Below, piece by piece: positions 5,201 to 10,913 of a DNA stretch of 64,000 nt. The notes below the pieces were generated by a model. That model was not told the origin of the DNA. It was given only the letters and a program-made list of their open reading frames with translations, and searched no databases. The position numbers and the translations under genes were made by a program. Origin of the DNA: Dechloromonas sp. ZY10 (GTDB taxonomy: Bacteria; Pseudomonadota; Gammaproteobacteria; Burkholderiales; Rhodocyclaceae); NCBI RefSeq assembly GCF_041378895.1, contig NZ_CP144212.1:3085501-3149500 (forward strand), read 5' to 3'. How positions within the stretch are numbered: the stretch's first letter is position 1; each line of letters opens with the position of its first letter.

Positions 5201-5214
5201 AAGGGGGAGCTTTG
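5201..5214 (+). promoter_or_regulatory. Shine-Dalgarno that selects a TTG start
   Basis: AAGGGGGAG at 5201-5209, followed immediately by the in-frame TTG at 5212. Starting here gives MKHSPAKRR and then a clean signal peptide. An earlier in-frame ATG at 5161 adds 17 residues that spoil the signal sequence and has no good ribosome site. Confidence 0.7.
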
Positions 5215-6570
5215 AAACATTCACCAGCCAAGCGGCGGCCAGGGGGGCCGACCAGCCGTTTGTCGCAGATCGCGTGGGCCCTGGCTTTATGCCTGCCGCT
5301 CAGCGCCGGCGCCCAGCAGGCCTTGATTGACCAGGCGCAAGCCCTGGTCGCTTCGGGCAAGGCCGGTGACGCCTACCTGCTGCTCGAAGCCAGCGAGGAG
5401 GCCTATGCTGGCGATGCCGCCTTCGATTACCTGCTGGCCAGCACGGCACTCAGCAGCGGGCGGCCGAGCAAGGCCATCTTCGTTCATGAGCGGATTCTCG
5501 CGGTCGATCCGTCCTATGTCGGCGTCCGCGCCGACATGGGTCTGGCCTACTACGCGCTGGGCGACTATGCCCGAGCCAAGATCGAATTCGAGGCTGTGCT
5601 GGCGATTGGCAATCTGCCCTCGGACCTGCGTAGCCAGGTCGAACAGTACGTACGGGCGATCGATGCCCGCAACCAGAGCGGCGGGGGCTACCGTACCGCC
5701 TACGTCGAATTCGGCTTCGGGCGCGACAGCAACGTCGGCAGCGCCACCGAACACCGCCTGCTCAATTTGCCGGCTTACGGCCTGTATCAACCGCTCCCGC
5801 CGATCGGCCTGCGCCGGGGAGACAACTACTCGACCCTGGCGCTGGGCGGCGAAATCAGCCACCCGCTCAATCAACGGCTGGGCATCTATGCCGGTGCAGA
5901 CTACCGGATCCGCGACTACCGCCACTATAACGATCCCAATACCTGGACTCTGGACGGTCGTGCCGGCCTGAGCTACAGCGGTAACGACTGGCTGTTGCGC
6001 GGCGGCGTGCTGCTTGGCGAATACCGCTACAACGCCGCCCGCCTGCGCCAAAGCAGTGGCGCAACTCTCGACTGGCGCCAGGCCATCGATGCCTCCAACC
6101 AGTTCACCGCAGGTGCCTCGGTGATCAAGGCCAACTATCTGACCCGCAGCACGCTGGGTCAGGACGTCAATATCTACAGCGGCAACCTCGGCTGGCTACG
6201 CGCCATCGGCAACGGCAATACGGTCCTGGGCCTGAGCGGCACCCTCGGCTACGAGGAATCCTTGCGTTCGCGCGACGATGGTGACCGCCGCTTCTGGGGA
6301 CCACGCCTGACCGTGCAGTCAAGCTTCAATCCGGTTCTCGGCGGCTACCTCACCACCGGTGCCACCCATTCGGTCTATAGCGGCAACAACACCAGCTACC
6401 AGTTTGCCCGCAATGAAACCACTTACGATCTGACCATGGCCCTGAACTGGACCGTGGCCAAGGGCGTCGCCCTGCGGCCGCAGGTGTCGTACATCAAGAA
6501 CGTCAGCAATGCGACGCTCTACTCGTACGACAAGACCGACCTCTCGCTGAACCTGCGTTTCGATTACTGA
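5212..6570 (+). CDS. Outer-membrane TPR plus beta-barrel protein (Slam/DUF560-like), first copy
   Basis: 452 residues from a TTG start. A basic N-region (KRRPGGPTSR) and hydrophobic core end at AGAQQ, a likely signal peptidase site. Residues ~35-165 form TPR-like helical repeats (AQALVASGKAGDAYLLLEA; MGLAYYALGDYARAKIEFEA). The rest alternates as expected for a beta-barrel, with the motif FGFGRDSNVGSA at the barrel start and an aromatic C-terminus (LNLRFDY) typical of BAM substrates. The architecture matches surface lipoprotein assembly modifiers and related TPR porins. The protein at 7791-9011 is a shorter relative with the same DSN motif. The FecR-domain gene follows 13 bp later, so the two are co-transcribed. 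Transport of the FecR or caspase protein is only a hypothesis. Confidence 0.82.
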   Translation: MKHSPAKRRPGGPTSRLSQIAWALALCLPLSAGAQQALIDQAQALVASGKAGDAYLLLEASEEAYAGDAAFDYLLASTALSSGRPSKAIFVHERILAVDPSYVGVRADMGLAYYALGDYARAKIEFEAVLAIGNLPSDLRSQVEQYVRAIDARNQSGGGYRTAYVEFGFGRDSNVGSATEHRLLNLPAYGLYQPLPPIGLRRGDNYSTLALGGEISHPLNQRLGIYAGADYRIRDYRHYNDPNTWTLDGRAGLSYSGNDWLLRGGVLLGEYRYNAARLRQSSGATLDWRQAIDASNQFTAGASVIKANYLTRSTLGQDVNIYSGNLGWLRAIGNGNTVLGLSGTLGYEESLRSRDDGDRRFWGPRLTVQSSFNPVLGGYLTTGATHSVYSGNNTSYQFARNETTYDLTMALNWTVAKGVALRPQVSYIKNVSNATLYSYDKTDLSLNLRFDY

Positions 6571-6583
6571 GCGAGGCCCAGAC

Positions 6584-9011: not shown

Positions 9012-9071
9012 AGCTCTGAAGCTCTGAAGCTCTGAAGCTCTGAAGCTCTGAAGCTCTGAAGCTCTGAAGCT
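9011..9071 (+). repeat. Seven perfect tandem copies of an 8-bp unit
   Basis: The octamer AAGCTCTG is repeated seven times without error (9011-9066), followed by a partial copy. It begins on the last base of the preceding stop codon and fills nearly the whole gap between two convergent genes. The unit is not a multiple of three, so it is not coding. Such arrays change length by slippage. Confidence 0.97.
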
Positions 9072-9077
9072 TGCTTG

Positions 9078-10913
9078 TTATCTGCGCAGATCGATCAGGA
9101 AGTCGCCCCCGGCAACATGGCCCGCGCTTTGCACCGCCCCCAGTTGCGGCACTTGCGGATATTCGGCGGTGACATCGTCGCGAATCCGGTCGAACAACTG
9201 ACCGACGGTCGTGTTTTCCTGCAACCCCTGGAGTCGCTCGATCAGCGCCGCAGCAAAAATCGAATGGCCATTACGCCCCTCATCGCTGACCGGCTCCTCC
9301 CCCCCCGAGGTAAGAGCCAGCACTGAACGCCTGGCCAGCAATTCGGAACGCGAAACCGTCGGCTGCGCACGTGCGCTCTGCTCATTTGCCAGAGTGCCGG
9401 AATAACAGCTGTCGGAGATCAGGATCACCTGCTTGGCCGGAATTGCCGTCAGCAACTTGGTGATGTCGCTATTGGAAACCCAGCCTGCCGGATCGCGACT
9501 GTTGCCATCAACCGGAATCCAGTAGCCCTGCCGGGTTTCGCTGATCTGATAACCGTGACCGGCATACATCACTAGTACGCTCTGATGCTGCCCGGTCGTT
9601 TTACCAGCCAGCTGCAAGGTCCTGATGATCTGCGCCTTGCTTGCGTCATGCAGCACCTTGACGTCGTAGCCCATCCGTTCGCGCAACACCTGCCCCAGTA
9701 CTTCAATATCGGCACGGGGCGTTTCCAGTTCCGGAATCGGCGCCTGATAACGGCTATTGGCAATCAGATAGGCGACCCGCCGACCGATTTCCATCGGCTG
9801 AACCGTGCTTGCCTGCACCCGGGCAATCGTCGCGGCCGGCGGAACGCAGACGTCGCTGCGGCCACTGCACTCTTCAACATCAGCCAGTTTGGGATTGCTT
9901 TTCAACTGCCCCAGGGCTTCCTTGAACATCTCGCTGCGCTGCTCACGCCGGGCCATGTCGATCACCGCCAGTTGCGCGAGACGTTCGGGGCCAACGCCCT
10001 GGCGGCCATTTTTTCCCGCAGTTGGCTCGCCCCCTTGTCCAGGTTTTTCCCCCGGCCCCCGGCCTTCGCCATTGCCTCGCTTCTCTCCCGGCGGTGAAGC
10101 TGGACGCCGCTCCTGCGCGGGGTTTCCGGGGCCTCGCCCAGCCTCTTTTGGCAGCCCGGCCTCGCCGCGCCGGGAAGCATCCGGCGCGCCTGCACGTTGT
10201 CCCGGTTGTCCCGGTTGTCCCGGTTGTCCCGGTTGTCCCGGTTGTCCCGGTTGTCCCGGTTGTCCCGGTTGTCCCGGTTGAACCTGTTGTCCCGGTTGAA
10301 CCTGTTGTCCCGGTTGAACCTGTTGTCCCGGTTGAACCTGTTGTCCCGGTTGAACCTGTTGCCCCGGCTGAACCTGTTGCCCCGGCTGAACCTGTTGCCC
10401 CGGCTGAACCTGTTGCCCCGGCTGAACCTGTTGCCCCGGCTGAACCTGCTGCCCCGGCTGAACCTGCTGCCCCGGCTGAACCTGCTGCCCTGGTTGAACC
10501 TGCTGCCCCGGCTGAACCTGCTGCCCTGGTTGAATCTGCTGTACCGGTTGAATCTGCTGTACCGGTTGAATCTGCTGTACCGGTTGAATCTGCTGTACCG
10601 GTTGAATCTGCTGTACCGGTTGAATCTGCTGTACCGGTTGAATCTGCTGTACCGGTTGAATCTGCTGCACCGGTTGAATCTGCTGCACCGGTTGAATCTG
10701 CTGCACCGGTTGAATCTGCTGCACCGGCTGGATCTGCTGTACCGGTTGAATCTGCTGTACCGGTTGAATCTGCTGTACCGGTTGAATCTGCTGCACCGGC
10801 TGGATCTGCTGTAGCACCTGTGCATATGAAGAGTGCGCCAGCAAGCCGGCGGGAAAGAACACCAGATGACGCAACCAGCGCCTGGGCAACAGCCATCGTG
10901 TGAGCTTGGTCAT
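9078..10913 (-). CDS. Exported caspase-fold (C14, metacaspase-like) protease with Q/P/G repeat domain
   Basis: 611 residues from the ATG at 10913 (MTKLTRWLL), which begins a signal peptide with RR and a hydrophobic core ending HSSYAQ. Longer starts at 10919 and 10985 are possible. Residues ~34-237 are repeats: about 16 QQIQPV, about 14 QQVQPG, then several QPG. A basic linker follows. The C-terminal ~240 residues are a caspase p20-like domain: RRVAYLIANSRY, catalytic His in YAGHGY near 452, catalytic Cys in DSCYSG near 501, and SGGEEPVSDEGRNGHSIF. The dyad is intact, so an active Arg/Lys- or Asp-specific peptidase is likely. It runs convergent to the TPR-barrel/FecR genes and directly downstream of the AddB-like gene. 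The substrate is unknown. Confidence 0.88.
   Translation of the reverse strand: MTKLTRWLLPRRWLRHLVFFPAGLLAHSSYAQVLQQIQPVQQIQPVQQIQPVQQIQPVQQIQPVQQIQPVQQIQPVQQIQPVQQIQPVQQIQPVQQIQPVQQIQPVQQIQPVQQIQPVQQIQPVQQIQPGQQVQPGQQVQPGQQVQPGQQVQPGQQVQPGQQVQPGQQVQPGQQVQPGQQVQPGQQVQPGQQVQPGQQVQPGQQVQPGQQVQPGQPGQPGQPGQPGQPGQPGQPGQPGQRAGAPDASRRGEAGLPKEAGRGPGNPAQERRPASPPGEKRGNGEGRGPGEKPGQGGEPTAGKNGRQGVGPERLAQLAVIDMARREQRSEMFKEALGQLKSNPKLADVEECSGRSDVCVPPAATIARVQASTVQPMEIGRRVAYLIANSRYQAPIPELETPRADIEVLGQVLRERMGYDVKVLHDASKAQIIRTLQLAGKTTGQHQSVLVMYAGHGYQISETRQGYWIPVDGNSRDPAGWVSNSDITKLLTAIPAKQVILISDSCYSGTLANEQSARAQPTVSRSELLARRSVLALTSGGEEPVSDEGRNGHSIFAAALIERLQGLQENTTVGQLFDRIRDDVTAEYPQVPQLGAVQSAGHVAGGDFLIDLRR
10201..10812 (-). 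repeat. In-frame minisatellite in the caspase gene
   Basis: Eight perfect 9-bp units (10201-10272) are followed by thirty 18-bp units (10273-10812). The array drifts along its length, from CCGGTTGAACCTGTTGT-type units to units coding QQIQPV. All units are multiples of three, so the gene stays in frame. Blocks of identical units indicate recent slippage or unequal exchange. Confidence 0.97.

What the first reader, a model, noticed from the sequence alone, without database searches (positions are those of the whole stretch)
5212..10913. Secreted caspase / FecR / twin TPR-barrel cassette
Four genes all encode exported products: two outer-membrane TPR plus beta-barrel proteins sharing a G-DSN motif, a FecR-domain protein with a long Pro/Gly/Gln tail, and a caspase-fold protease with an intact His/Cys dyad behind ~200 residues of QQIQPV/QQVQPG repeats. 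The barrels resemble Slam-type exporters, so one reading is that they move the FecR or caspase protein to the surface, where the repeat region acts as a stalk. I know of no characterised system with this set. A self-processing or envelope-stress cell-death role is speculative.
Basis: partly seen in the sequence, partly recalled or inferred. Interest (0 to 1): 0.8.

Follow-up and report, generated by a model that had tools for sequence, protein, structure and literature searches.

The report
Exporter–FecR gene pair beside secreted caspase
Between two DNA-repair genes this bacterium carries an outer-membrane exporter paired with a FecR protein that it may export, a second exporter-like barrel, and a caspase-like protease that looks secreted; the exporter–FecR pairing recurs in many other proteobacteria and may be a new kind of cargo for a recently described secretion system, while the four-gene set itself looks like a local assembly.

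Summary
The sequence observation is correct; the four-gene 'system' is not supported. The cassette lies between addB and addA. The one other genome where I found it, an Azonexus relative, has A, B and D but not C at the locus; D (E<=1e-30) occurs in 2 of 76 genus genomes, the window's included. Two separable modules are real. (1) A and C are divergent relatives of the Slam/T11SS barrel (profile E 5.6e-44 and 1.2e-21). Their usual partner is a FecR-domain protein: 23 of 24 partner proteins scanned; phylum-wide 19 of 47 SlipAM genes lie within 3 kb of FecR, against 1 of 48 autotransporter matches (itself a SlipAM gene). Many of these FecR proteins end in a T11SS-cargo-type barrel, one over both Pfam cut-offs. 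I read FecR proteins as a probable T11SS cargo class, not met in my literature searches. Window B lacks that barrel, so its own export is less sure. (2) D belongs to a caspase family that elsewhere ends two-partner-secreted exoproteins (including a paralogue in this genome) or sits in autotransporter–hydrolase–caspase operons. D at the surface is plausible; D moved by A or C rests on proximity only.

The parts
5212..6570 (+). Gene A: TPR + T11SS/Slam-superfamily outer-membrane barrel, TTG start, 452 aa
   Evidence: Pfam SlipAM over cut-off; profile comparison with SlipAM set 100%, E 5.6e-44
6584..7663 (+). Gene B: FecR-domain protein with signal-like N-terminus and Pro/Gly/Gln-rich tail; no cargo-type C-terminal barrel
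   Evidence: Pfam FecR over cut-off; no match to cargo-barrel profiles, E 1.9 and 4.2
7670..7691 (+). Hairpin followed by T run, probable terminator of A-B
   Evidence: pattern only; number found in the region not above shuffles
7791..9011 (+). Gene C: second TPR + barrel of the same superfamily, probable TTG start (7767 is an alternative)
   Evidence: TPR in Pfam; profile comparison with SlipAM 99.4%, E 1.2e-21, and with A family 99.9%, E 5.8e-32
9008..9071 (.). 8 exact copies of an 8-bp unit between C and D
9078..10913 (-). Gene D: caspase-fold protease with signal-like N-terminus, 611 aa
10200..10811 (-). 18-bp tandem array coding the QQIQPV/QQVQPG and QPG repeats of D
   Evidence: composition differs in the congener L035
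9846..9869 (-). Conserved Cys pair in the pre-caspase segment of D (core residues 44 and 51), possible disulphide
   Evidence: at least 90% conserved in 32-row alignment
9555..9557 (-). Catalytic His codon of D
   Evidence: invariant
9405..9407 (-). Catalytic Cys codon of D
   Evidence: invariant
1593..5048 (-). addA, boundary gene of the insertion (not part of the modules described)
11023..13773 (-). addB, boundary gene of the insertion; same strand as D

Best explanation
The region is a composite inserted between addB and addA, not one system. A and B are a T11SS-type pair: A, a TPR plus outer-membrane barrel of the Slam superfamily, receives B in the periplasm and moves it across, or presents it at, the outer membrane. 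Shown by sequence: the homology of A, the recurrent pairing with FecR genes, and cargo-type barrels on many FecR partners of relatives. Inferred: that B, which has no such barrel, is still a client of A. C is a second barrel of the same superfamily; relatives of C also sit by FecR genes, and in one locus scanned by a CHASE2-cyclase and a Crp-type regulator. D is a caspase-type cysteine protease with an export signal by eye, from a family that elsewhere ends two-partner-secretion exoproteins or is encoded with an autotransporter-type barrel. It most likely acts outside the cytoplasm, on envelope or extracellular proteins, with the Gln/Pro repeats as a flexible spacer.
For: Profile comparisons of A and C with SlipAM, autotransporter-barrel set as negative control at 0.2%. 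FecR in 23 of 24 partner proteins scanned. SlipAM–FecR within 3 kb: 19 of 47 SlipAM genes, 18 of 39 genomes, 18 of the 19 on the same strand; control autotransporter–FecR 1 of 48 matches, itself a SlipAM gene, Fisher p 2e-6. FecR (51.7 bits) + TbpB_B_D (30.3 bits, cut-off 26) in one protein with SlipAM beside it. FecR C-terminal domains against T11SS-cargo-type barrels: 94%, E 1.4e-7, control 0.1%; with that cargo profile the only 5 of 931 called proteins at E<=0.01 are FecR proteins in A- or C-type barrel loci. D family: TPS domain in 8 of 8 long members tested plus the paralogue in this genome, which has ShlB next door; hydrolase-like in 20 of 32 upstream genes (E<=0.05) and autotransporter barrel in 13 of 26 second-upstream genes; dyad invariant; caspase fold.
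Against: B and its closest relatives lack the cargo barrel. 28 of 47 SlipAM genes have no FecR within 3 kb; the 18 positive genomes are 12 genera, four of the genomes from one genus, and one neighbouring FecR hit (G286) is below its cut-off. The autotransporter control occurs in only 23 of the 39 genomes. The barrel of A could not be modelled (pLDDT near 22), so strand number and Slam fold are not shown. The crude signal rule found A 14 of 22, B 18 of 21, short D 26 of 31, against 190 of 623 other called ORFs (duplicates included): weak support. The hydrolase hits of upstream genes are mostly weak. No expression or localisation data.
Confidence: 0.62

Rival explanations
1. A true four-component machine: A and C carry B and the stalked caspase D to the surface, where they act together.
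For: A, B and D stay together between addB and addA in a congener (A 84%, D 83%, B 57% identical); the caspase family repeatedly travels with outer-membrane exporters; this genome shows no autotransporter match and no match to one class I hydrolase (no positive control).
Against: C is missing from the congener's locus. In the 6 other family genomes that hold both A and D these lie on different contigs or 400 kb apart; co-occurrence in 150 family genomes is weak (7, p 0.076). D shows no cargo-barrel domain in Pfam. A-B and D are on opposite strands.
Confidence: 0.13
2. A-B is not an export pair: the barrel exports a polysaccharide or assembles a surface structure (PgaA/BcsC-like), and B is a periplasmic FecR-type sensor or scaffold.
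For: PMC8406197 reports PgaA homologues inside PF04575 (passages). B has no cargo barrel. C has a marginal PgaA hit (E 0.038, 12 bits against a cut-off of 367).
Against: A's neighbours are addA and B, not a polysaccharide synthase. Relatives' FecR partners carry T11SS-cargo-type barrels.
Confidence: 0.2
3. D is a periplasmic housekeeping or stress protease with no link to outer-membrane export; the repeats are slippage-expanded filler.
For: The 18-bp array is nearly perfect (95-96% matches) and differs in the congener (25 QQIQPV, no QQVQPG), as expected of slippage. D has only a Sec-type leader, by eye.
Against: The sister module ends TPS exoproteins, and class I members sit by autotransporter-type barrels. 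Both Azonexus copies keep a long in-frame Gln/Pro spacer.
Confidence: 0.3

Closest known systems
Slam / type XI (T11SS) secretion, DUF560/SlipAM (PF04575)
   Same: TPR plus barrel architecture, near full-length profile homology of A and C, gene next to a putative cargo
   Different: Cargo described in the papers seen (TbpBBD-type C-terminal barrel proteins; DUF1194 proteins as candidates) is replaced here by FecR-domain proteins; window B lacks the cargo barrel; C is below Pfam's threshold
Prokaryotic caspase homologues (ortho-/metacaspases, C14)
   Same: Fold, His/Cys dyad
   Different: Signal-like leader, a conserved pre-domain with a Cys pair, and association with type V exporters or, here, with T11SS-type barrels
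Two-partner secretion exoproteins and caspase-domain polymorphic toxins (PMC3482391, passages)
   Same: The same caspase module ends TPS exoproteins, one of them in this genome
   Different: Window D has no TPS domain and no TpsB beside it; a Gln/Pro repeat stands in place of the long exoprotein body
LapA-type retention module (NF033682)
   Same: Weak local similarity of B (28 bits, cut-off 50)
   Different: Below cut-off; B has no large adhesin body

Membership tests
T11SS/Slam outer-membrane protein (gene A) | SlipAM/DUF560 domain over curated cut-off | tested here: met
   33.7 bits against 22; profile E 5.6e-44
T11SS/Slam outer-membrane protein (gene A) | N-terminal TPR region | tested here: met
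   TPR part of the model pLDDT 64-88
T11SS/Slam outer-membrane protein (gene A) | 14-stranded barrel | tested here: inconclusive
   barrel not modelled, pLDDT near 22 with 2 sequences
T11SS/Slam outer-membrane protein (gene A) | secretes a neighbouring cargo | not testable with these tools
   needs experiment
T11SS/Slam outer-membrane protein (gene C) | SlipAM/DUF560 domain over curated cut-off | tested here: not met
   no SlipAM row at E<=1; distant homology by profile, E 1.2e-21; so a superfamily relative, not a Pfam member
T11SS cargo (gene B) | C-terminal TbpBBD-type barrel | tested here: not met
   no PF01298 row at E<=1; cargo profiles E 1.9 and 4.2; many relatives' FecR partners do match
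T11SS cargo (gene B) | gene next to a T11SS outer-membrane protein | tested here: met
   13 bp after A, same strand
Caspase-fold peptidase C14 (gene D) | domain, fold and His/Cys dyad | tested here: met
Caspase-fold peptidase C14 (gene D) | proteolytic activity | not testable with these tools
   needs experiment
Two-partner secretion exoprotein (gene D) | N-terminal TPS domain and TpsB partner | tested here: not met
   only C14 found in D at E<=1; both met by the paralogue in L095
Polymorphic toxin (gene D) | immunity gene beside the C-terminal toxin module | not tested
   no candidate searched for
Anti-phage defence protein | match to a PADLOC model | tested here: not met
   A, B, C and D core: 0 families at E<=0.01; the TPS-caspase paralogue in L095 hits a caspase model, E 2e-9

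The most novel reading that the evidence does not exclude
A caspase displayed by a type XI-type pathway: the barrels A and/or C move the stalked caspase D, with the FecR protein B as co-cargo or gate, to the outer surface. The same caspase family would then have been coupled three separate times to outer-membrane exporters (two-partner secretion, autotransporter-type barrel, T11SS-type barrel), and FecR proteins would be a third major T11SS cargo class.
Probability: 0.13. Interest if true: 0.85.

Novelty: new variant of a known kind. Interest (0 to 1): 0.58.

Why it matters
According to PMC12282271 (abstract read) only seven T11SS, all of one animal-associated cluster, have been verified to secrete cargo. 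A recurrent SlipAM–FecR pairing, with FecR proteins that end in the cargo-type barrel, gives a concrete cargo hypothesis for other T11SS that can be tested in laboratory strains. Separately, a caspase family that forms part of two-partner-secretion exoproteins points to an extracellular role for some bacterial caspases.

Tried and rejected
The sequence search of A against solved structures found TPR proteins only. The FecR C-terminal profile against solved structures gave only weak matches to Bcl-2-related proteins (E 1.2 or more).

I first thought that some neighbours of class I caspases (L040, L044, L047, L155) were FecR proteins; Pfam gave no FecR hit for any of the four, so I dropped it. 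CHASE2-cyclases do sit near the caspase in L040 and L047.

The first gene finder chose shadow ORFs; I replaced it. The new one lost the A genes of L082 and L083 and called an opposite-strand ORF after A in L087, so one search covers 20 A genes in 18 of 20 fetched regions, 19 with a same-strand downstream gene. The 20 regions were mostly the best-scoring of the A matches, not a random draw. From the 49 SlipAM rows over cut-off I dropped 2 second pieces of split genes, leaving 47, and left out 6 rows under cut-off. Of the 48 autotransporter rows used as control 4 are under cut-off. One of 12 SlipAM loci tried as reference (L165) gave a wrong-strand ORF and was left out. Caspase loci L149, L156 and L157 (repeats of L038, L053 and L054) and L095 were left out of the neighbour lists. 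Of the 12 long caspase proteins, 8 had their N-terminus scanned; L036 and L064 are cut by contig ends, in L058 the TPS-type part lies in a separate upstream ORF, and L035 is class III.

The search of the window's own genome for one class I hydrolase was empty but had no positive control. Literature searches listed no paper that I recognised as tying FecR proteins to T11SS, or as describing this TPS–caspase family; only their listings were seen except for four papers. Of PMC12282271 I read the abstract, outline, section 18 and passages; of PMC8406197, PMC3501461 and PMC3482391 passages only. Subscription papers, preprints and all supplements were not seen.
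Full report
WHAT IS THERE. The four genes are as described: A 5212-6570 (+), B 6584-7663 (+), C about 7791-9011 (+), D 10913-9078 (-). A carries TPRs and SlipAM (33.7 bits, cut-off 22), B a FecR domain (33.2, cut-off 24), C a TPR (40.6, cut-off 25), D a C14 caspase domain (93.7, cut-off 21.4). A hairpin with a T tail follows B (pattern only). D starts 109 bp after addB on the same strand and may be read with it; A-B is on the opposite strand, and C is probably a separate unit.

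SETTING. The cassette lies between addB and addA. In 20 loci of the genus around the start of addA, counting the window's own, only the window and G408 show gene A there; 12 others show addB within 1.5 kb, six of them with 150 bp or less between the addB and addA matches. Wider fetches of nine loci show other genes in the gap in several, with no match to A-D. The junction is therefore a variable site. D at E<=1e-30 occurs in 2 of 76 genus genomes, the window's included.

IS IT ONE SYSTEM? In 150 family genomes, the window's included, A (E<=1e-10) occurs in 32, D in 31 at E<=1e-10 and 19 at E<=1e-60, C in 12 at E<=1e-6 and 9 at E<=1e-17. With the stricter cuts, which I chose, A and D share 7 genomes (p 0.076), A and C share 1 (the window's), C and D share 4 (p 0.016, not corrected for three tests). 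In the six other genomes with A and D these lie on different contigs or 400 kb apart. So the four genes are not a conserved unit, as far as sampled.

MODULE 1, BARREL AND FecR. A's family against 11 SlipAM proteins gives 100%, E 5.6e-44 over 406 columns; C's family against them 99.4%, E 1.2e-21 over 353 columns; A against C 99.9%, E 5.8e-32; autotransporter control 0.2%. Both barrels are thus of the T11SS superfamily, C distantly. Of 20 A-type genes in fetched family loci, 19 have a same-strand downstream gene; these 19, three second copies, window B and L035 B were scanned, and 23 of 24 hit FecR at E<=0.01. Phylum-wide, 39 of 249 genomes have SlipAM over cut-off. Of 47 SlipAM genes 19 have a FecR match within 3 kb (18 of 39 genomes; 30 of the 39 have any FecR match), 18 of the 19 on the same strand. 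The 18 genomes are 12 of 31 genera, four of them in one genus; one of the 19 FecR matches (G286) is under its cut-off. Control in the same genomes: 1 of 48 autotransporter matches, and that one is the SlipAM gene itself (Fisher p 2e-6, rows taken as independent; autotransporters occur in only 23 of the 39).

Many partners look like cargo. One protein has both FecR (51.7 bits) and TbpB_B_D (30.3 bits, cut-off 26), with SlipAM beside it. C-terminal domains of ten FecR partners match a set of T11SS-cargo-type barrels at 94%, E 1.4e-7 (control 0.1%), although on their own only 2 of 10 hit PF01298, the better at 19.6 bits, below cut-off. The ten-member profile finds 14 of 24 FecR proteins at E<1e-6, ten of them by construction; the independent cargo profile finds 11 of 24 at E<0.01, and among 931 called proteins only 5 at E<=0.01, all five FecR proteins in loci with an A- or C-type barrel, one of them (L144) directly beside a C-type barrel. 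Against this: B of the window, B of L035 and the relatives in L075-L077 do not match (E 1 or more) and most end in Pro-rich tails. L075-L077 have two FecR genes after A; the window and L035 have one. So window B is a candidate client without the usual signal. Relatives of C: FecR beside it by Pfam in L142 and L145 and by profile in L144; CHASE2-cyclase and a Crp-type regulator by Pfam in L145.

MECHANISM. Best reading: A presents or exports B; C is a second such barrel; D acts outside the cytoplasm. My estimates: B is a client of A, 0.45; D works outside the cytoplasm, 0.75; D is on the surface, 0.45; D is moved by A or C, 0.13. None is shown by experiment.

KNOWN WORK. PMC12282271 (abstract, section 18) describes TbpBBD-type cargo for cluster 1 and DUF1194 neighbours for cluster 3, and its main text does not contain 'FecR'; nor does that of PMC8406197. 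PMC3482391 (passages) predicts caspase-like domains as processing or toxin domains of polymorphic toxins. PMC3501461 (passages) notes that some prokaryotic caspase homologues may be extracellular.

Noticed in passing
window 669-1463 (+): Small protein with an RTX nonapeptide repeat and DUF4214 on the far side of addA; a DUF4214/RTX protein also occurs near a C-type barrel in L145.
   Followed up: partly
window 5085-5211 and 10914-11022; genus loci L217-L244: The addB-addA junction is a variable insertion site in this genus: near-direct neighbours in some genomes, other genes between them in others.
   Followed up: partly
window 9008-9071: Eight perfect copies of an 8-bp unit at the C-D convergence; function unknown.
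   Followed up: no
L145:1149-9758: A C-type barrel locus holds FecR, CHASE2-adenylate cyclase and a Crp-type regulator, suggesting cAMP control of a FecR/barrel system.
   Followed up: partly
L039:5929-8903 and similar loci: Three-gene arrangement: autotransporter-barrel protein, hydrolase-like probable lipoprotein, caspase; a protein kinase follows in L046.
   Followed up: partly
L075, L076, L077: A-type barrel followed by two FecR genes; the window and L035 keep only the one most like the second.
   Followed up: partly
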